From NCBI GenBank assembly GCA_003670925.1, contig QWQG01000041.1, positions 1 to 36,591 of the forward strand: 36,591 bases of DNA, in the 5' to 3' direction. Below are positions 1 through 9,587 of this stretch, one piece after another; the first letter of the stretch is position 1; each line of letters opens with the position of its first letter. The notes beneath the pieces were generated by a model, which worked only from the letters and a program-made list of their open reading frames with translations, was not told where the DNA came from and ran no database searches. Position numbers and translations under genes: made by a program. This DNA comes from Planctomycetota bacterium. GTDB taxonomy: Bacteria; Planctomycetota; Planctomycetia; Planctomycetales; Planctomycetaceae.

Positions 1-927
1 ACGGAGAACAACCGGCTCTTCATCGCCGCCTACGGCCTCGACGGCGAGTTGCAGCCCGAAGTGCCCGAGGCGCAAATCACCCTCGCCCGCGCCGACGCCC
101 GCCGCGACATGGCCGCCTTCCTCTCCTATGCCGTCGGCTGCATGATGGGCCGCTATTCCCTGGACGCTCCCGGCTTGATCCTCGCGGATGCCGGTGCAAC
201 GGTGGAAGATTATCTAAAGAAGGTTTCGTCCTTCCGTAGCTTGGACATTCTTGTCCGAGATTCTTCCCGTAGCTTGGACATTCCTGTCCGAGCTTCTTCG
301 ACAATGAAGGAAGAAGCGACGGACAGGAATGTCCATCCTACGGAAGACAACGTGATTCCAATCCTCGACGGCGACTGGTTCCCCGACGACATCACCGAAC
401 GATTTAAAAAGTTCCTCAAGGTGACCTTCGGCGAAGAGCACTTCGATGAGAACATGCGGTTCCTTGAAGAATCACTCGGAAAAGACGTCCGCAAGTACTT
501 CCTGACGGACTTCTACAAGAACCATGTTCAGACCTACAAGAAGCGTCCGATCTACTGGCTGTTCAGCAGCCCGAAAGGTACGTTCAACGCACTGATCTAC
601 ATGCACCGCTACCGCCCGGACACAGTCAGCGTGGTGCTGAAGTACCTGCGTGACTTCCAGACCAAACTGCAGGCTCACAAGCAGCATCTGCAGTCCATCG
701 CCGACAGTGCCGACGCGAAGAAGGCCGACAAGACGAAGGCTCTGAAAGAGATCACTCAGTTGACGAAGGACCTGAAGGAACTGGAAGACTACGAACGCAA
801 AGTCATCTATCCTCTGGCCTCCGAACGCCGCGAAATCGATCTCGACGACGGCGTCAAACACAACTACCCACTCTTCGGCGAGGCTTTGAAAAAGATCGCC
901 GGGCTGGATGCTAAGGAGGATGAGTGA
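1..927 (+). CDS. pglX: BREX adenine-specific DNA methyltransferase PglX, C-terminal part (5' end outside window)
   Basis: The reading frame is open from base 1 to the TGA at 925-927, giving the last 308 residues of a protein that is normally about 1,200 aa. PglX methylates adenines in host DNA and marks self in BREX phage defence. The methylase motifs lie upstream of the window. The recognisable part is the conserved C-terminal end: a stretch ending in SLDAPGLILADAG (about 53-65), then IPILDGDWFPDD, the block TFGEEHFDENMRFLEESLGK, a DFYKNH/YKKRPIYWLFSSPKG segment, and a charged coiled coil (about 205-260). Between the first two blocks about 38 codons are contributed by palindromic repeats (234-343), including a tandem 33-bp unit read as SLDILVRDSSR then SLDIPVRASS. 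Homologues as I recall them have only a short linker there. The frame stays open, so the protein may be functional. pglZ and brxL follow on the same strand, as in type 1 BREX. Confidence 0.9.
   Translation, partial: TENNRLFIAAYGLDGELQPEVPEAQITLARADARRDMAAFLSYAVGCMMGRYSLDAPGLILADAGATVEDYLKKVSSFRSLDILVRDSSRSLDIPVRASSTMKEEATDRNVHPTEDNVIPILDGDWFPDDITERFKKFLKVTFGEEHFDENMRFLEESLGKDVRKYFLTDFYKNHVQTYKKRPIYWLFSSPKGTFNALIYMHRYRPDTVSVVLKYLRDFQTKLQAHKQHLQSIADSADAKKADKTKALKEITQLTKDLKELEDYERKVIYPLASERREIDLDDGVKHNYPLFGEALKKIAGLDAKEDE
234..343 (-). repeat. Palindromic repeat cluster inserted in frame within pglX (copies A, B, C)
   Basis: Copies A (from 234) and B (from 267) are direct repeats with a period of exactly 33 bp (30 of 33 bases equal between 235-267 and 268-300). 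Copy C (about 318-343) is inverted. Each has a 14-base core, GGACATTCTTGTCC or GGACATTCCTGTCC, flanked by CCGTAGCT on one subfamily and CCGTAGGA on the other. B and C share the same C/G variant in the core, so their arms still match and could form a hairpin. Read on the minus strand the order is CCGTAGGA-type arm, spacer, inverted CCGTAGCT-type arms, the same arrangement as at 963-1095 and 15889-16020. Because the unit is a multiple of three and has no stop in this frame, it is translated inside PglX. Confidence 0.85.
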
Positions 928-962: not shown

Positions 963-1095
963 CCGTAGGATGGACATTCTTGTCCGTCGCCTGACCAATA
1001 ACCTCGCGTCTATGCCAGCAGTTTTGTCCAGCGTACATCGTGCACAGTGTGGAATCATTTGGTGAACATCTCGGACAAGAATGTCCAAGCTACGG
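963..1095 (+). repeat. 133-bp REPIN/MITE-like doublet (copies E and F) between pglX and pglZ
   Basis: The left arm begins CCGTAGGATGGACATTC and the right arm is an inverted CCGTAGCT-type copy ending CCAAGCTACGG. They form imperfect terminal inverted repeats of about 24 bases around roughly 80 bp of non-coding DNA. A 132-bp element with the same arm order lies at 15889-16020, and both carry TTTGGTGAA shortly before the right arm. I see no transposase. The right arm ends 13 bases before the pglZ start codon, so the element forms the pglZ leader. Confidence 0.75.
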
Positions 1096-1108
1096 AAAAA
1101 CAAGAACA

Positions 1109-3625
1109 ATGAAAAGCCAGATCAACGATGTCCTGTCCCGCATGTTTCAAAAGCATCGGATCATCTTTTGGTACGACGATGAGAAATCTCTGCGGAAGGA
1201 TTTTGAATCGGTCGAGCTGGATGGTGTCGAACGCGTCGAGGTGCAGAACAACGAGTTCATGCTGAAGTACCGCATGTTGCGGGAACAGCCGGAGCAGCAG
1301 TTTTTGGTGTATCACGAAGGGCCGCAGCCAGAGGATCTGCAGAACTGGCTGCTGGATGTCCTGCTGGCTCACGATCAGGTGCGTGTGAATCAGGTGTCCC
1401 TGTATATGCACGAAGTCGGACTGCCATTTGATTTCAGCGACGTGGCAGCTCAGCATTCTGAGTTCTTCAAAGCGGCCAAACGACGGCAGGCTCTGCAGAA
1501 ACTGGTGACCGTTGATGAAACGAAGACTCGCTTAAGGCAGAAACTAATGGCCGTCTGTGTGGCGGCAGAAGCAAAACTCGAGGCGATCCTGGAAGCTCTG
1601 ATGAGCGAGTTGGCTGATGGTCGCGAGGACAAGTACCGATTGCTGGAGAAGTGTGATCTGACATCGACGCTATGGGAGCAGGCCCGACGAGTCTACGGCT
1701 ACCGGTCCGAATCCGCCGGTGTTCTGGATTTCGTCATTGAACTGTTTAAGTCCTGCTTTGCTCAGGGGCTCGGTGAGTCGTCAAAGCTGAACCCAGAGGC
1801 CATGGTGTTTCTGAAACGCTGGAAGGACAGCAGGATCCATGAAGAAGCGTTTGAAAAGCTGTCCGACCAGTGTGCTGACGTGTTGGGGATTCAGCAGCAA
1901 CTGGAGACGATGGAAGTCAGGAATATTGCGGAGATCGACTACTTCCGGCGAGTCGATCAGAAGATCCTAAGCGATCTGGTTCGCCTGGTGGGCGAGCGAT
2001 TGATCACTGCGGGCGAAAGCACAAAGCTGATCCGGCAGCGTCGAATCGGACATTGGTACCGCAATTTCCAACACGAATACGAAGCGGTGGAACTGGCTGG
2101 ACGCCTGATTGAGCTGATCAGCGATGTGTGCAATCTGCAGATGCAGTCCCCGGAGGAGGGTTTCAGTCGCTACACGGAGAGTTGGTATCAGGTCGATCAG
2201 CTGTATCGGCAGTTCTGCTTCAATCTGCGACGGTCGACTCACAATTCCTTGCTGCAGCCCTTGTCAGAAAAGGTGGAGCAGCTGTATTCGAACAAGTTCC
2301 TGCTGCCACTGGGAGATCGCTGGCAGGCGGTTGTCGATCAGCAGGAGACCTGGTCAACTGGAGGCTTGTTGCCCCAGAGAGGTTTCTACGAACAGTTTGT
2401 GCTGCCGTTTTTGTCTCAGGGGAAAAAAGTCTGTGTCATCATTTCCGATGGCCTGCGGTACGAGATCGCCCACGAACTGGCATCCACCATTCGCCAGGAG
2501 GACCGGTATTCGGCCGAAGTCAAAGCGATGGTGACGGGCTTGCCCAGCTACACACAACTCGGCATGGCAGCGCTGCTGCCGAATCAGGAATTGAAGATCA
2601 GTGACGTCTCAAAGGGCGAAGTCCAGGTGGACGGGAAACCGTCAGGTGGGCTGGAGAATCGTCGCAAGATTCTGGTGTCGGCGGTGACCGCTGCGGAAAA
2701 GAACTGGAAGGCCGACGCACGCGGCGCTACTGAGATTCTCGACATGCACAAAGATGCGGTTCGAGAGTTGTTTCGTGACAACAATGTGATTTACATCTAT
2801 CAGGACATCATCGACAGCACGGCTCATTCCACCAAGTCCGAAGATCGGGCGTTCGAAGCCGTGCAGGAAGCCATGGACGAACTGGTGAAGCTGGTCAAGA
2901 AACTGACGTCGGCCAATGCCAGCAATCTGCTGGTGACTGCAGATCATGGCTTCATCTTCCAGAACGGGGTCCAGGAAAGTGACTTCGTAAGTTCGGAAGC
3001 GAATGAGGCAGAATCAGAATATCGCGACCGCCGTTTTCTGCTGGGCACGAATATGCCGAAACGCGACGGCCTGAGGCACTATCGAGCCGAGCAGGTGGGA
3101 TTGGCCGGATCGGCAGAGATGCTGATTCCCAAGTCGATCAATCGCCTGCGTCTGAGCGGATCCTGCTTTCGATACGTTCACGGCGGTGCGTCGCTGCAGG
3201 AAGTCGTTGTGCCGGTGATCAGCATCAACAAAAGTCGTCAAAGCGATGTGGCACAAGTCGATGTCGAGCTGATCCGCGGATCGGTCAGTACGATCTCCAC
3301 CGGACAACTGGCAATTCAGCTTTATCAGATGCAGCCGGTTGACGACAAGCTGAAGGCTCGGACAATCCGCGTGGGGATCTATGCTCAAAATGGCGAATTG
3401 GTCAGTGATGAGCAGGAAATTCCATTTAACCTGACATCTGACAACCCGCGAGATCGGGAGATGAAGACTCAGTTGGTTCTTTCCGGTGCTGCCGACGCGT
3501 ACAACAACCAGCAGGTCGTTCTGAAACTCATGTGTCGTGTTCAGGACACCGGACATTTCCAGGACTACAAATCTCAGCAGTACACATTGCGACGTTCTTT
3601 CACCTCAGATTTCGACTTTGAATGA
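1109..3625 (+). CDS. pglZ: BREX alkaline-phosphatase-like protein PglZ (type A)
   Basis: The product is 838 aa. PglZ is a core BREX component with an alkaline-phosphatase superfamily fold. It is required for defence and probably works in a complex with PglX. The N-terminus (INDVLSRMFQKHRIIFWYDD) is typical of BREX-1 PglZ. The metal-binding core shows VIISDGLRYEIAHEL at about 442-456 and LLVTADHGFIF at about 607-617, followed by HGGASLQEVVVPV near the end of the domain and a beta-rich C-terminus. The frame is open further upstream to a GTG at 1040, but those 23 codons are translated palindromic repeat (they read as GEHLGQECPSYGK), so I chose the ATG at 1109. No strong Shine-Dalgarno is visible. 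The stop overlaps the brxL start by four bases (ATGA), which implies translational coupling. Confidence 0.95.
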   Translation: MKSQINDVLSRMFQKHRIIFWYDDEKSLRKDFESVELDGVERVEVQNNEFMLKYRMLREQPEQQFLVYHEGPQPEDLQNWLLDVLLAHDQVRVNQVSLYMHEVGLPFDFSDVAAQHSEFFKAAKRRQALQKLVTVDETKTRLRQKLMAVCVAAEAKLEAILEALMSELADGREDKYRLLEKCDLTSTLWEQARRVYGYRSESAGVLDFVIELFKSCFAQGLGESSKLNPEAMVFLKRWKDSRIHEEAFEKLSDQCADVLGIQQQLETMEVRNIAEIDYFRRVDQKILSDLVRLVGERLITAGESTKLIRQRRIGHWYRNFQHEYEAVELAGRLIELISDVCNLQMQSPEEGFSRYTESWYQVDQLYRQFCFNLRRSTHNSLLQPLSEKVEQLYSNKFLLPLGDRWQAVVDQQETWSTGGLLPQRGFYEQFVLPFLSQGKKVCVIISDGLRYEIAHELASTIRQEDRYSAEVKAMVTGLPSYTQLGMAALLPNQELKISDVSKGEVQVDGKPSGGLENRRKILVSAVTAAEKNWKADARGATEILDMHKDAVRELFRDNNVIYIYQDIIDSTAHSTKSEDRAFEAVQEAMDELVKLVKKLTSANASNLLVTADHGFIFQNGVQESDFVSSEANEAESEYRDRRFLLGTNMPKRDGLRHYRAEQVGLAGSAEMLIPKSINRLRLSGSCFRYVHGGASLQEVVVPVISINKSRQSDVAQVDVELIRGSVSTISTGQLAIQLYQMQPVDDKLKARTIRVGIYAQNGELVSDEQEIPFNLTSDNPRDREMKTQLVLSGAADAYNNQQVVLKLMCRVQDTGHFQDYKSQQYTLRRSFTSDFDFE

Positions 3626-5703
3626 TGCCTGACGAAACCAAAATCAAGATGAGTCCTCTGGATGAGAAGCTGACGGGCCTCGTGCAGCATCTGGTCGTCC
3701 GGAAGGATCTGATCCGCAAGGTCAAAGGCAACGCCATTGTTCCCAGCTACGTGCTGGAATACCTGTTGTCTCAGTACTGCACGGTTTCCGATGAAGCCCA
3801 GATTGCGGCGGGCATTGAACGAGTTCTGAGCATCCTGAAGGAGCACTACGTTCATCGCAGCGAGGCGGGCCTGATCCGATCGATGATTCGCGAGAAGCGC
3901 AGGCCGCACAAGGTCATCGACCGTGTGAGTGTCAGCCTGAATGACAAGAACGACGTGTACGAAGCGACGTTTTCGAATCTGGGGATCAGCAAAGTTGTTG
4001 TGCCATCAGAGACGGTGAAGCTGCATCAGAAACTGCTGACCGGCGGCGTGTGGTGTCTGGCGGATATTTCGTATGAACATGCCGAGGGCCGGGAGACGCC
4101 CTGGACGCTGGAAGCCCTGAAGCCGATCCAGAAGTCATCATTCAACTTTGACGAGTACGTGGAAGCTCGCCGACATTTCAGCACCGACGAATGGATCGAT
4201 GTGCTGATGCAGAGTATCGGCCTGAACCCCGAAGCCTTCAGCCGTCGCAAAAAATTCAATCAACTGACACGCCTGATCGCATTTTGTGAACGCAACTACA
4301 ACCTGATGGAACTGGGTTCGAAAGGAACCGGCAAGTCGCACGTGTTTTCCGAGCTGTCTCCGCATGGCATGTTGATTTCCGGCGGCGAGATCACGGTGCC
4401 CAAGCTCTTCGTGGAAAACCGACGTCCCTACAACCTCGGCCTTGTCGGTCACTGGAGCTGCGTCGCGTTCGATGAGTTTGCGGGCAAGGGGAAACGAGTC
4501 GATAAGGCTCTTGTCGACATCATGAAGAACTATATGGCGAATAAGACGTTTTCACGCGGCGTGGAAACTCTGGGAGCCGAAGCGTCCATGGTGTTCATCG
4601 GCAACACGCGGCATTCGGTGGCTCACATGCTGAAGCACGCGGACCTGTTCGACGAACTGCCGACGCAGTACCACGACCCCGCATTCCTTGACCGTCTGCA
4701 TTTCTACATTCCCGGCTGGGAAGTGGACATTGTGCGGTCGGAGCTGTTTTCCTCCGGCTTCGGCTTCGTGATTGACTACTTCGCGGAGATTCTGAAGAAG
4801 CAGCGAGACGACGACTTTTCACAGTTGTTCGCTCCGCACTTCAAGCTGTCGGACGATCTGTCGACTCGCGATCGTGAGTCGATCAATAAGACGTTTTCTG
4901 GTATGATGAAACTTCTGTACCCGCATCGCGAAGCGGCAGTCGAAGAGATCGAGGAAGTGCTGGTCTGGGCCATCGAAGGTCGAAAACGCGTGAAGGACCA
5001 GTTGTTGCGAATCGACGAAACCTTTGAGCCCGTGACGTTTTCTTTCACAAGAATGACAACGGGTGAGGTTGTTCGTGTCTCAACGCTGGAAGAACAGCAA
5101 TACCCGGCGATCTATTGGCCTGATCAACTTCGCGATGCAGCCCCGGTGGATGCGTCCGAGACCGCTACCACAATGCCGTCGGACGCGGACGTTTCAGGTG
5201 ATGCAAAGCGGGATGAACTGCCGCAGATTCGGCGGGTGATACGGGAGAATCAGACAGGGATCGACTTTGATATGCTGTTCGGTCCGTATCTGAAGGGAGC
5301 CAAAGAAATCACGATCACGGACACTTATCTCCGCAAGTTCCATCAGGCGCGCAATCTGATGGAGTTTCTGGAAACGATCGCGCGGCTGAAGTCGGACTTC
5401 GAAGATATCCACGTGCACCTGATTGTCTCGCCGGATGATATTGGCACGGTTTATCAGGAGGAGTACTTCTCAAAGATCCAAGAAAACGTCGGCCCGATCG
5501 GCATGATCTTCGACTGGGAATTCCGTAACGACCTCCACGCCCGCCACATCATCACCGACCACGGCTGGGAAATCCTCCTCGACCGAGGCCTCGACGTATT
5601 TCAGCCCTACGACATGAAAGATGCGTTCAGTCCGGCAAATCGACTTCAAAAGTTCCGGCAGTGTAAGAAATTCGAAGTGACGTTCCGCAGGAAAGATGGC
5701 TGA
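3622..5703 (+). CDS. brxL: BREX AAA+ protein BrxL with a MITD1-like C-terminal domain in place of Lon protease
   Basis: The product is 693 aa. Residues about 10-480 follow the BrxL pattern: an N-terminal region (VRKDLIRKVKGNAIVPSYVL), a middle region (LLTGGVWCLADI, EARRHFSTDEWIDVLM), then the AAA+ ATPase with Walker A ELGSKGTGKSHV at about 231-242, Walker B VAFDEFAG near 282 and SMVFIGN near 325. Known BREX-1 BrxL proteins end in a Lon-type protease domain. Here I see no Lon Ser/Lys region. After a linker at about 495-540, residues about 545-685 read ITITDTYLRKFHQARNLMEF, IHVHLIVSPDD, and DLHARHIITDHGWEI leading into LDRGLDVF. I recognise this as the phospholipase-D-like MIT C-terminal (MIT_C) domain described in human MITD1. 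The final gene of the locus, it ends 19 bp from the convergent DUF1501 gene. The BrxL call is firm. The C-terminal assignment is by eye. Confidence 0.92.
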   Translation: MMPDETKIKMSPLDEKLTGLVQHLVVRKDLIRKVKGNAIVPSYVLEYLLSQYCTVSDEAQIAAGIERVLSILKEHYVHRSEAGLIRSMIREKRRPHKVIDRVSVSLNDKNDVYEATFSNLGISKVVVPSETVKLHQKLLTGGVWCLADISYEHAEGRETPWTLEALKPIQKSSFNFDEYVEARRHFSTDEWIDVLMQSIGLNPEAFSRRKKFNQLTRLIAFCERNYNLMELGSKGTGKSHVFSELSPHGMLISGGEITVPKLFVENRRPYNLGLVGHWSCVAFDEFAGKGKRVDKALVDIMKNYMANKTFSRGVETLGAEASMVFIGNTRHSVAHMLKHADLFDELPTQYHDPAFLDRLHFYIPGWEVDIVRSELFSSGFGFVIDYFAEILKKQRDDDFSQLFAPHFKLSDDLSTRDRESINKTFSGMMKLLYPHREAAVEEIEEVLVWAIEGRKRVKDQLLRIDETFEPVTFSFTRMTTGEVVRVSTLEEQQYPAIYWPDQLRDAAPVDASETATTMPSDADVSGDAKRDELPQIRRVIRENQTGIDFDMLFGPYLKGAKEITITDTYLRKFHQARNLMEFLETIARLKSDFEDIHVHLIVSPDDIGTVYQEEYFSKIQENVGPIGMIFDWEFRNDLHARHIITDHGWEILLDRGLDVFQPYDMKDAFSPANRLQKFRQCKKFEVTFRRKDG

Positions 5704-7189: not shown

Positions 7190-9587
7190 ACATAAACTCA
7201 CTGGATGCCATGACGACATGACAGAGAACACGCCACGATTCCAAACTTCGCTGCTGAGCGTCGAGTTCGCTTCCGTGGAGGGATTGACTGACTTGCTGGA
7301 GGAACGCTAAGTCCTGGATTTGCTCCTGTTCCGATGGCTCACGCCCGAGCGCAAGTTGGTACAGTTTCGCCAGTCGCGCGGAAGTGTCATCTGTTCCTGC
7401 ACAAATTTGTCCGGCAAGATCGGCAGCCGCCTGCATGACGAAGTCGCTGTTCATCATCAACAGCGCCTGCGTAGCCACGGTTGTTGTCGAGCGGTCGCCC
7501 GTCGGAACGGCGGGGTCGGGAAAGTCCAAGAGCTGAAACACGTCATAGACGTTGTTACGAATGACGGGCAAATACAACGATCGGCGGCGGCTGCTGTAGT
7601 CCGACTTATCAATGGAGGTATGGTCGAACAGGTAGCCACGGTTCTTGACCTGCAGCAGTGATCCGCCCATCGTTCGGTCTAACGTTGCGCTGATCTGCAG
7701 GATGGTATCCCGGACTTCTTCGGCATCCAGTCGTCGTACGCGGAAACGGCCCAAGAGTCGATTTTCTGGATCTCGCTCAACTGTTTCCGCAGCCACAACA
7801 CTGCTCTGCCGATAAGTGCGGGAGTTCAGCAGCAATCGATGAAATGCCTTCAGTGACCAGCCATCAGCCATGAATCGTCGCGCCAGCCAGTCGAGCAGTT
7901 CCGGGTGAGTGGGCTCTTCGCCAAGAATGCCAAAATTTTCGGTGGTGCGGACAAGCCCCTCGCCAAAGTGCCATCGCCAAAACCGATTGACGAGGACGCG
8001 CGCAGTTAGCGGATTCTGAGCGTCCGTCAGCCACTGTGCCAGTTCCCGCCGCCCACTTTGCGTGGAGCTAAACGTTGGGGCCCTTGGGCCCTGCATCACC
8101 GGTGGAAGGTGTCGGACAACCACATCTCCCAGTTGCGATGGATTCCCGCGGACATGCACGGCTACGTCCGCAATCTGATCTTCCATGACACCCATCGTCG
8201 ATGGTAAATCGGGCAGCGTTTTTTCCAGCGTCGCCAGTTCGTCTCGGAGCTTGACAAGGGCGGTTTTAGTGACTTCCGGGTAGCGCGACGCCAGCGACTC
8301 CGGTGGTGCCTGAAGGTCCGGCAAACTGCTGCGCGCCAATTTGTCCGCCTCGGCAACTAGCGTTTCAATTTCCTGCTTCTTCGCGGCCAATTGCGCGTCG
8401 TATGCCGTCTGCATGGCGGCGGCTTCAGGAGTCTGCAGCAGATGCTCATGCCAGCGGGCCACCTTGGTGTAGGTGTCCATCGTGCGCGTGCTTTTGAAAA
8501 TGCCCGCCAGCCCGTAGTAATCCGCCGCATCGATCGGGTCGAATTTATGGTCATGACACCGAGCACACCCAAATGTCATTCCGAGGAAAGTCCGGCCTAA
8601 CGTATCGATCTGCTCGTCCACGATGTCCATGCGCATTTTTGGCTGATTCACTTCCGCCAGAACCTTGGGGCCGATGGACAGAAAACCCGTGGCAATCAAG
8701 AACTGGTGCCGCTCGTCGTCAGACGTGAACTCGAGCAGATCGCCGGCGATTTGTTCGGTGATGAAGCGGTCAAATGGTTTGTCGGCATTGATGGAGGACA
8801 CGACGTAGTCACGGTAACGCCACGCAGTGCCGTGTGCGATATTTTCATCCAGCCCATTGGAATCTGCGTAGCGGGCCACATCCAGCCAATGACGTCCCCA
8901 GCGCTCGCCATAAGTCGGCGATGCCAGCAGTCGATCGACAAGGTGGGCGTAAGCATCCGGGCGTTCGTCAGTTAAAAATGCGGCTATCTCGTCCGGCGTT
9001 GGCGGCAGACCTGTCAGATCAAATGTCACGCGACGAATGAGTGTTCGCTGGTCAGCCATTGGTGCCGGAATCAGATGTTCGGCTTCCAGTCTGGCCAAGA
9101 TAAATCGATCTACGTCTGACTGGACCCAGGTCGTGTCTTGAACTTCAGGCACTTGCCCGGACACCGGTGGCTGGAAGGCCCAATGTCCCGGATCACGAAA
9201 GCGTTTTTTGGTGAGAGGCGTCTCCGGATACGGCGCCCCCAACGCGACCCACTGAACCAAAGTCTCAATCTGTCGCTCGGTCAATTTTTTATCCTGGGGC
9301 ATCTTCAGATCTTCGTCTTCATGACGAATCGCCCGGATCAGCAGACTGGCATCCGGCTGCAGCGGAATCACGGCCGGCCCGGAATCGCCCCCCTGAAGCA
9401 GCGCAGCGCGAGAATCCAGCCGGAGTCCGGCCCATTGTTTTTTTTCGCCATGACAGTTCAAACACTGATCGGTCAGCAGCGGGCGAACATCTGTTTCGAA
9501 GAACTTCAGATGTTCATCTGAAAACGTCTGCTGCGGCAGGGACGGAGATTCATCAATCCACAGGGAGAGCAGCAGGAGAATTAGCAC
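7179..9587 (-). CDS. PSD1 cytochrome c / DUF1549 / DUF1553 protein
   Basis: The product is 802 aa from a GTG at 9587, which is preceded by GAAAGGTGGT as a ribosome binding site. A short hydrophobic leader (LILLLLSLW) suggests export. The planctomycete cytochrome domain follows with one haem c motif CLNCH at 42-46 and KMPQDKKLTERQIETLVQW near 95-112. DUF1549 follows (FILARLEAEHLIPAP, RRVTFDLTGLPPTPDEI, YGERWGRHWLDVARYADSNG, FGCARCHDHKFDPI). Between the domains there is a coiled-coil-like stretch near 400-460. DUF1553 makes up the last third (ELAQWLTDAQNPLTARVLVNR, HPELLDWLARRFM, RRLDAEEVRDTIL, LLMMNSDFV). A second CxxCH (CARCH) lies inside DUF1549. The family is very abundant in planctomycetes but its biochemical role is not established. 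It is coupled to the DUF1501 gene downstream. Confidence 0.9.
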   Translation of the reverse strand: MLILLLLSLWIDESPSLPQQTFSDEHLKFFETDVRPLLTDQCLNCHGEKKQWAGLRLDSRAALLQGGDSGPAVIPLQPDASLLIRAIRHEDEDLKMPQDKKLTERQIETLVQWVALGAPYPETPLTKKRFRDPGHWAFQPPVSGQVPEVQDTTWVQSDVDRFILARLEAEHLIPAPMADQRTLIRRVTFDLTGLPPTPDEIAAFLTDERPDAYAHLVDRLLASPTYGERWGRHWLDVARYADSNGLDENIAHGTAWRYRDYVVSSINADKPFDRFITEQIAGDLLEFTSDDERHQFLIATGFLSIGPKVLAEVNQPKMRMDIVDEQIDTLGRTFLGMTFGCARCHDHKFDPIDAADYYGLAGIFKSTRTMDTYTKVARWHEHLLQTPEAAAMQTAYDAQLAAKKQEIETLVAEADKLARSSLPDLQAPPESLASRYPEVTKTALVKLRDELATLEKTLPDLPSTMGVMEDQIADVAVHVRGNPSQLGDVVVRHLPPVMQGPRAPTFSSTQSGRRELAQWLTDAQNPLTARVLVNRFWRWHFGEGLVRTTENFGILGEEPTHPELLDWLARRFMADGWSLKAFHRLLLNSRTYRQSSVVAAETVERDPENRLLGRFRVRRLDAEEVRDTILQISATLDRTMGGSLLQVKNRGYLFDHTSIDKSDYSSRRRSLYLPVIRNNVYDVFQLLDFPDPAVPTGDRSTTTVATQALLMMNSDFVMQAAADLAGQICAGTDDTSARLAKLYQLALGREPSEQEQIQDLAFLQQVSQSLHGSELDAQQRSLESWRVLCHVVMASSEFMYVQ

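What the first reader, a model, noticed from the sequence alone, without database searches (positions are those of the whole stretch)
5221..5703. BrxL whose Lon protease domain seems replaced by a MITD1-like (MIT_C) domain
Seen: residues 1 to about 480 track known BREX-1 BrxL (Walker A and B intact), but the last about 150 residues carry ITITDTYLRKFHQARNLMEF, IHVHLIVSPDD and a DLHARHIITDHGW...RGLDVF pattern, with no recognisable Lon Ser-Lys region. Known: in human MITD1 such a C-terminal PLD-like domain binds membranes next to the ESCRT-III-interacting MIT domain. Inference: this BREX variant may use a membrane- or nucleic-acid-binding module in place of protease activity, notable in a phylum with complex membranes. 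Bacterial MIT_C proteins may already be known, so novelty lies in the fusion and its effect on defence.
Basis: partly seen in the sequence, partly recalled or inferred. Interest (0 to 1): 0.8.

Follow-up and report, generated by a model that had tools for sequence, protein, structure and literature searches.

The report
BrxL with phospholipase-D-fold tail domain
A bacterial anti-phage ring protein (BrxL) here ends in the same phospholipase-D-like domain that human MITD1 carries, in place of the usual Lon-like one; the swap is real, but it is common in bacteria and already published as a probable DNA-cutting variant.

Summary
The 693-aa BrxL at 3622-5703 has a normal BrxL N-terminus and ATPase, then a true MIT_C domain (PF16565, residues 546-688, E 7.9e-37; no Lon match). 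An AlphaFold model (pLDDT 95.4) superposes on human MITD1 at Z 23.0 and on PLD-fold nucleases and lipid enzymes at Z 8-10. The novelty claim fails: a 2026 NAR survey reports 1030 of 2913 BrxL-bearing type-1 BREX taxa with LonP replaced by an "HKD-endoDNase" with an HRD motif, and PADLOC has a full-length profile. The membrane reading is weak: the variant spans many phyla and is 2 of 25 classed BrxL loci in the window's own phylum. Added here: the window's tail, which fits that published description, is MIT_C with MITD1's polar signature; the catalytic Lys is Arg (84 of 85) and the Asp varies (73 D, 11 N, 1 S), so cleavage is unproven; MIT_C sits on three BrxL lineages, one BREX-4-like. Since the Lon-like domain of solved BrxL joins two rings tail to tail, I propose MIT_C replaces it as a pairing domain that forms composite PLD sites on DNA.

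The parts
3622..5703 (+). brxL, 693 aa, BrxL of the MIT_C type (fits the published 'HKD' type)
   Evidence: Pfam BrxL_N + BrxL_ATPase + MIT_C; PADLOC PDLC02508 997.7 bits over residues 10-691
3688..4074 (+). BrxL_N domain (residues 23-151)
   Evidence: PF20442, E 1.9e-42
4102..5040 (+). BrxL ATPase domain (residues 161-473)
   Evidence: PF13337, E 6e-120; full-length model superposes on BrxL 8emh, Z 42.9 over 8-511
4315..4338 (+). Walker A, GSKGTGKS (residues 232-239)
   Evidence: G235-S239 invariant in the 9 rows of A1
4471..4476 (+). Walker B Asp-Glu (residues 284-285)
   Evidence: invariant in A1 and A3
5128..5211 (+). flexible linker (residues 503-530) between ATPase and tail
   Evidence: pLDDT below 50 in the full-length model
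5257..5685 (+). MIT_C / PLD-fold tail domain (residues 546-688)
   Evidence: PF16565, E 7.9e-37 and 1.3e-37 in the genome search; model Z 23.0 to MITD1
5320..5355 (+). first conserved patch D567..R571..Q575..N578
   Evidence: D567, Q575, N578 invariant in 75 tails; D567 88 of 88
5536..5559 (+). HxR(x)4D motif, HARHIITD (H639, R641, D646)
   Evidence: H 85/85, R 84/85, position 646 D 73, N 11, S 1 of 85 rows ungapped there, among 88; in register with HxK(x)4D in hhalign (weak)
5584..5595 (+). RGLD (residues 655-658)
   Evidence: R655, G656, D658 invariant in 75 tails
1040..3625 (+). pglZ, BREX-1 PglZ type A, 861 aa
   Evidence: TIGR02687, 810.5 bits
1..927 (+). 3' end of pglX (BREX-1 adenine methyltransferase), cut by the contig end
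   Evidence: NF033452 profile positions 931-1209 of 1210 (346 bits, under the whole-protein cut-off of 500 as only the end is present); 68% identical to a plasmid pglX 3' end

Best explanation
This is the BrxL of a type-1 BREX anti-phage system, of the subtype in which the Lon-like tail is replaced by a single-motif phospholipase-D-fold domain (Pfam MIT_C, the domain of human MITD1). Shown here: the domain's identity, its predicted fold, its invariant residues (9 of 12 polar: D567, Q575, N578, H639, R641, R655, D658, Q661, R679), and that MIT_C tails stand on three separate BrxL lineages. Inferred mechanism: BrxL subunits form an ATP-driven ring on phage DNA. In solved Lon-type BrxL the C-terminal domains pair and hold two rings tail to tail. 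Single-motif PLD domains typically work as pairs (recall), so I propose that MIT_C takes over this pairing and thereby builds composite PLD sites at the ring-ring joint that grip DNA phosphates and may nick DNA. I put acting on DNA rather than membrane at about 0.8, pairing of rings at about 0.55, and true nuclease activity at about 0.5.
For: MIT_C match and no Lon match; 75 of 75 tails in A2 match MIT_C. Model pLDDT 95.4; Z 23.0 to MITD1, then, among others, SauUSI 10.0, NgoAVII 9.3, NucT 9.0, Nuc 8.7, BfiI 8.2. HxR(x)4D sits in register with HxK(x)4D of PLDc_2 domains (P 0.0025, probability only 11.8%). Invariant His and near-invariant Arg. MIT_C is mostly joined to this ring ATPase: the 5 over-cut-off hits in 299 genomes of the phylum of a Methylophaga all carry the BrxL ATPase in the same frame, and 17 of 25 plasmid records matching the tail are annotated brxL. 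C-terminal pairing of rings in solved BrxL: PMC10164562, passages. MIT_C on three lineages, one-clade test p 1.3e-47 for 25 rows and 6.7e-6 for 24, which fits an exchangeable module.
Against: The catalytic Lys of PLD enzymes is Arg in 84 of 85 rows; the same change, K898R in PLD1 and K758R in PLD2, is used to disable those enzymes (mutants named in PMC3648575, passages; that these are the inactive ones is partly recall). The third residue is Asn or Ser in 12 of 85 rows. The fold does not tell DNA from lipid: phosphatidylserine synthases (9.5, 8.9) and a bacterial phospholipase D (8.8) score like the nucleases, and human PLD2 leads the Foldseek list after MITD1. In DNA-bound BrxL the paired C-terminal domains lie far from the DNA in the pore, and type-1 BREX was said to act without cleaving the phage genome (PMC10164562, passages; Lon-type). 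MITD1 shares the patches and is described as membrane-binding (title of Hadders et al. 2012 in a reference list). Type-4 BrxLs lack any tail (PMC12839542; 10 of 11 rows of that branch here), so pairing by a tail is not universal. No oligomer was modelled.
Confidence: 0.7

Rival explanations
1. The tail is an active HKD-type DNase fused to the BrxL ring ATPase and cuts phage DNA directly (the published reading).
For: PMC12839542 (passages): HRD motif 'likely preserves its enzymatic activity'. Structural neighbours include restriction nucleases SauUSI, NgoAVII and BfiI. The His is invariant (85/85).
Against: Lys to Arg in 84 of 85, Asp not fixed; 47 of 47 PLDc_2 domains taken from relatives of the window's genome keep the Lys (a biased set: the profile was built from rows chosen for HxK). 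No activity assay is reported in the passages I read. Lipid enzymes of the fold score as well as nucleases.
Confidence: 0.45
2. The tail is a dead PLD fold used only for assembly and regulation: it couples two rings, as the dead Lon-like domain does, and the pocket is at most a phosphate sensor.
For: Both alternative tails look catalytically degenerate: Lon-like without a protease site (PMC10164562, passages), PLD with Lys to Arg. The Lon-like domain pairs rings. MITD1 keeps the same patches (alignment) without a known hydrolase role (recall).
Against: Twelve columns, nine of them polar, are invariant in 75 tails, more than a pure scaffold should need (inference).
Confidence: 0.35
3. The tail brings BREX to membranes, as MIT_C does in MITD1.
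For: Closest solved fold is MITD1; lipid enzymes are among the next matches; one bacterial MIT_C protein has a dynamin-like GTPase in front of it (L008).
Against: The usual partner is a DNA-binding ring ATPase; another MIT_C protein carries a DEAD helicase (L018); no tie to one phylum.
Confidence: 0.12

Closest known systems
BrxL with C-terminal HKD-endoDNase (Rakesh and Krishnan, NAR 2026, PMC12839542; they cite Li et al. 2025, the Menshen paper, not held, for the first report)
   Same: BrxL N-terminus and ATPase, Lon-like domain replaced by a PLD-superfamily domain with an HRD motif, in type-1 BREX
   Different: The paper does not hold the terms MITD1 or MIT_C (not among the papers), so that its HKD domain is MIT_C is my match of description, not of its sequences; it calls the variant specific to type-1 BREX, while here MIT_C also stands on a BREX-4-like BrxL (L017)
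PADLOC profile PDLC02508 (BrxL, 698 positions)
   Same: Matches the window protein over residues 10-691, tail included, 997.7 bits; matches 44 of 44 members of A3
   Different: Only a name; nothing said on the tail
Solved BrxL, PDB 8EMC/8EMH (Acinetobacter, organism by recall)
   Same: N-terminus and ATPase, 42% identical in the structural match, Z 42.9 over residues 8-511
   Different: Lon-like C-terminal domain instead of MIT_C
Human MITD1, PDB 4A5Z/2YMB
   Same: Tail fold and patches: E 7.3e-16 by sequence, Z 23.0
   Different: MITD1 has an ESCRT-III-binding MIT domain, not an ATPase; its motif ends in Asn (HDREIRFN) where the window has Asp
PLD-fold restriction nucleases SauUSI, NgoAVII R protein, BfiI; nucleases Nuc, NucT
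   Same: Fold, Z 8.2 to 10.0
   Different: HxK motif in those enzymes (recall), HxR here; sequence identity 9-11%

Membership tests
BrxL | BrxL_N and BrxL_ATPase domains | tested here: met
   both far over cut-off; TIGR02688 565.3 bits against 329.3
BrxL | Walker A and Walker B | tested here: met
BrxL, Lon type (TIGR02653) | Lon-like C-terminal domain | tested here: not met
   523.3 bits under the 628.25 cut-off, match ends at residue 484; no Lon match at E<=1
MIT_C (PF16565) | profile match over the gathering score | tested here: met
   126.8 bits against 25, profile 1-140 of 142
MIT_C (PF16565) | MITD1-type PLD fold | tested here: met
   predicted model: Z 23.0, rmsd 1.8, 152 residues aligned
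HKD/PLD nucleases | HxK(x)4D motif | tested here: not met
   HxR(x)4D in the window; Arg in 84 of 85 rows
HKD/PLD nucleases | phosphodiesterase activity | not testable with these tools
   needs a bench assay
Type-1 BREX | PglZ type A and PglX next to BrxL | tested here: met
   TIGR02687 810.5 bits; C-terminal part of PglX
Type-1 BREX | brxA, brxB, brxC upstream | tested here: inconclusive
   the contig starts inside pglX; no BrxC found in the assembly (the model rings in 2 of 14 control genomes); brxA and brxB not searched
MITD1-like ESCRT proteins | N-terminal MIT domain | tested here: not met
   no MIT match among Pfam hits at E<=1

The most novel reading that the evidence does not exclude
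MIT_C is an exchangeable ring-pairing cassette that BREX-like systems have picked up at least three times, including in a BREX-4-like branch whose ten other sampled rows lack any tail. Its shared H-R-(D/N) pocket is an ancient phosphate-gripping pseudo-PLD site, so human MITD1 and BrxL use one and the same pocket, and MITD1's domain may descend from the bacterial defence repertoire.
Probability: 0.3. Interest if true: 0.6.

Novelty: new member of a known kind. Interest (0 to 1): 0.38.

Why it matters
How BREX stops phage is unsettled; BrxL is reported as needed in the E. coli and Acinetobacter systems but not in Salmonella (PMC12839542, passage). Two unrelated folds swapping at the same place, one shown to pair rings, gives a direct way to separate 'assembly' from 'nuclease' roles of the BrxL tail. 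Recognising this tail as MIT_C also ties a bacterial defence domain to a human cytokinesis protein with a solved structure, which gives ready templates and mutants.

Tried and rejected
Chance resemblance: rejected, E 7.9e-37 and Z 23.0. A Lon-like domain hidden by divergence: rejected, no Lon hit at E<=1 and a different predicted fold. A novelty special to one phylum or to membranes: rejected. Weak MIT_C hits: L004, L005, L006 and L150-L153 are ABC-transporter ATPases, 7 of 7 with PF00005; one of them (G077) was over the Pfam MIT_C cut-off (26.9 bits). I dropped all seven. A MIT_C domain tree with the helicase, dynamin and IF2_N fusions was unresolved (2 of 26 inner branches starred), so the source of each tail is unknown. 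A tblastn search of the phage collection with the tail found nothing at 1e-5. Paper searches: BrxL with MIT_C gave 4 papers, three of them on plant BRX-like genes and one that lists PF16565 with BREX in passing; MITD1 with phospholipase D and bacterial gave 3, none on the link by title (passages of one read); MITD1/PLD/active site/HKD gave 51, of which the 20 listed hold no MITD1; MIT_C with phage and BREX gave 0; PF16565 gave 1; MITD1 with PLD-like gave 0; Menshen/NsnC/BrxL/HKD gave only PMC12839542. Li et al. 2025 and Hadders et al. 2012 are not held, so what they say on the active site is unread.

The Lon profile used for classing was built from six of the loci it then classed. Of 36 BrxL places, 30 became loci and 25 of these were classed. 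For the conservation count, 92 MIT_C loci became 88 by dropping four duplicates of the window and of G011; three rows are gapped at the motif. For the tree, 208 rows were cut to 86 by removing near-identical rows and one unclassed row, L100; rows not covering the ATPase were left out before. The tree was a quick search with SH-aLRT support only, and it warns that long branches meet where L017 joins. The group of 24 was named after seeing the tree. The organism of the window is not told by the tools: 'own phylum' is the group that the tool drew; Planctomycetota is an inference from the nearest BrxL by identity (Roseimaritima) and from the PSCyt and DUF1501 genes.

Full report
What was checked. 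The open frame 3622..5703 on the + strand encodes 693 aa. Pfam finds BrxL_N at residues 23-151, BrxL_ATPase at 161-473 and MIT_C (PF16565) at 546-688 with E 7.9e-37, 126.8 bits against a cut-off of 25, and no other family at E<=1.

Surroundings. In front of brxL lie pglZ (1040-3625, TIGR02687 type A, 810.5 bits) and the last 308 codons of pglX (1-927). The contig begins inside pglX. In the assembly (5.78 Mb, 259 contigs) no BrxC was found with a plasmid BrxC or with the NCBIfam model, which rings in 2 of 14 control genomes, and a plasmid PglX matches only at the start of this contig. So the upstream BREX genes are either missing from the assembly or absent; a complete system cannot be shown. 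Behind brxL, after 19 bases, a DUF1501 gene runs towards it.

Structure. The tail alone, folded with an alignment of 75 tails, gives pLDDT 95.4 and pTM 0.90. Foldseek puts MITD1 first (4a5z, E 4.2e-18, TM 0.86), then human PLD2 and other PLD-superfamily members. VIA-align gives MITD1 Z 23.0 (152 residues, 1.8 A), then SauUSI 10.0, E. coli phosphatidylserine synthase 9.5, NgoAVII 9.3, NucT 9.0, Haemophilus phosphatidylserine synthase 8.9, P. aeruginosa phospholipase D 8.8, Nuc 8.7, BfiI 8.2. The list mixes nucleases and lipid enzymes, so the fold does not choose between DNA and lipid; the tool also warns that Z under 8 can be a common arrangement only. The full-length model (pLDDT 83.2, linker 503-530 under 50) matches solved BrxL over residues 8-511 (Z 42.9) and MITD1 over 532-691 (Z 22.6).

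Conservation. In 88 BrxL-MIT_C rows (85 ungapped at the motif) H639 is present in 85 of 85, R641 in 84 of 85 (one Cys), and position 646 is Asp in 73, Asn in 11 and Ser in 1. Invariant in the 75 tails of A2: D567, Q575, N578, H639, R641, G648, W649, R655, G656, D658, Q661, R679. The phmmer alignment with MITD1 shows the same residue in human MITD1 for D567, Q575, N578, H639, R641, G648, W649, R655, G656 and D658; position 646 is Asn and 661 is Lys there, and 679 is outside the alignment. A profile comparison with 18 PLDc_2 domains from relatives of the window's genome put HxR(x)4D in register with HxK(x)4D, but weakly (P 0.0025, probability 11.8%). So the tail is a single-motif PLD fold whose catalytic Lys is Arg. 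In mammalian PLD1 and PLD2, K898R and K758R are standard mutants (named in PMC3648575, passages; that these are the inactive ones is partly recall; those enzymes have two motifs in one chain, recall). The published statement that HRD 'likely preserves' activity is therefore open.

Distribution. Of 392 genomes of the window's phylum, 31 have a BrxL ATPase, at 36 places. Of the 30 loci fetched, 23 have the Lon-like tail, 2 have MIT_C (the window and G011), and 5 were too short to class. One of these five (G378) belongs by its ATPase to the MIT_C clade but ends 27 residues after it, with no MIT_C found in the 11.5-kb stretch fetched around it. MIT_C itself was found at E<=0.001 in 6 of the 392 genomes: the two BrxLs, one DEAD-helicase protein (L018: DEAD, Helicase_C, MZB, MIT_C), and three that are ABC ATPases. 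In 299 genomes of the phylum of a Methylophaga genome, 9 have a match; the 5 over the cut-off carry the BrxL ATPase in the same frame (63.9-69.7% identical to the window over the part held), and the other four are ABC ATPases. Of 72,556 plasmid records 25 match the tail: 17 annotated brxL, 1 Lon protease, 2 'MIT C-terminal' (one a dynamin-like GTPase, L008; one a broken BREX locus, L009), 1 IF2_N protein (L011), 3 without a feature and 1 record without annotation. None of 50,697 phage records matches at 1e-5. A scan of one genome for each of 84,980 species returned BrxL-MIT_C from many phyla (best 80 kept of 577).

History of the swap. A tree of the N-terminal and ATPase parts (86 rows: 43 Lon, 25 MIT_C, 18 without tail) puts MIT_C in three places: a main clade of 20 rows with the window (plus the tail-less G378 row), a clade of four (L010 and three viral-contig loci) that joins eight Lon-type rows (support 94, not starred), and L017 alone among ten tail-less rows. 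Well-supported branches force at least 3 changes of the MIT_C label. Holding all 25 together is rejected (p 1.3e-47), and so is holding the 24 without L017 together (p 6.7e-6; this group was named after seeing the tree). Losses or exchanges from an early MIT_C ancestor are not excluded by this, and long branches meet near L017. L017 (G011) has an SspC/BrxC-like protein, a PglZ whose best BREX model is BREX-4 though far under its cut-off (31.7 bits against 140; a PorX model scores 39.5), BrxL-MIT_C, and upstream a protein with weak matches to adenine methyltransferases (best 60.5 bits, under the cut-off). Its BrxL ATPase is 54.5% identical to a tail-less BrxL on an Abditibacteriota plasmid, and the same tail-less branch holds L158, whose neighbour is a clear BREX-4 PglZ (533.5 bits). 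'BREX-4-like' rests on this. The 2026 survey calls HKD-fused BrxL specific to type-1 BREX, so this is a small extension.

What is known. Rakesh and Krishnan 2026 (PMC12839542; abstract, outline and passages seen) report 1030 of 2913 BrxL-bearing type-1 BREX taxa in which LonP is replaced by an HKD-endoDNase with an HRD motif, cite Li et al. 2025 for the first report, and propose an additional nuclease effector. PADLOC's PDLC02508 spans the architecture. One further paper lists PF16565 with BREX in passing (PMC12715929, passages). The fusion is thus known. That this HKD domain is MIT_C, with MITD1's signature, I did not find in print, within a library that lacks Li et al. and Hadders et al.; the identification itself rests on the matching description, not on that paper's sequences.

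Mechanism. In solved BrxL the C-terminal domains pair across two rings, about 600 square angstroms per pair in the heptameric form, and lie far from the DNA in the pore (PMC10164562, passages). The Lon-like domain has no conserved protease site, so no protease is lost by the swap. PLD domains with one motif work as pairs (recall). I infer that MIT_C takes over ring pairing and brings two HxR motifs together into a phosphate-binding, perhaps DNA-cutting, site; the distance from the pore DNA in the Lon-type structure speaks against contact unless the long flexible linker lets the tails move. Shown: identity, predicted fold, conservation, three lineages. Inferred: pairing, DNA contact, cleavage.

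Noticed in passing
window 1-927: The contig starts inside pglX and no brxC is found elsewhere in the assembly, so the BREX locus is incomplete as held.
   Followed up: partly
L155 (G378:C36), BrxL at about 7675-9144 of the locus: A BrxL from the window's phylum, 63% identical to the window over the ATPase and inside the MIT_C clade, ends 27 residues after the ATPase with no MIT_C found in the fetched stretch: natural tail loss or truncation.
   Followed up: partly
L017 and L154 (G011:C42): BREX-like locus with an SspC/BrxC-like ATPase, PglZ, BrxL-MIT_C, an SMC/RecF-like ATPase, an NsnA-like protein and a methyltransferase-like protein; fits no single BREX type that I tested.
   Followed up: partly
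L018:3663-9734: 2023-aa DEAD helicase with MZB domain and a C-terminal MIT_C with a degenerate motif, from the window's phylum; reminiscent of DISARM DrmA fused to a PLD (recall).
   Followed up: no
L008:6637-9480: Dynamin-like GTPase with a C-terminal MIT_C on a Thiodictyon plasmid, the one bacterial case seen that hints at membranes.
   Followed up: no
L011:5428-6477: IF2_N domain with a C-terminal MIT_C on a Paenarthrobacter plasmid.
   Followed up: no
L009:6180-9435: BREX remnants on a Hymenobacter plasmid: pglZ, brxL and MIT_C in separate annotated pieces.
   Followed up: no
L007:8690-9847: Methylomonas plasmid BREX of the same tail type carries an extra PDDEXK nuclease gene between pglX and pglZ.
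   Followed up: no
PF16565 model: The Pfam MIT_C model also picks up part of some ABC-transporter ATPases at 20-27 bits, once over its gathering score.
   Followed up: yes
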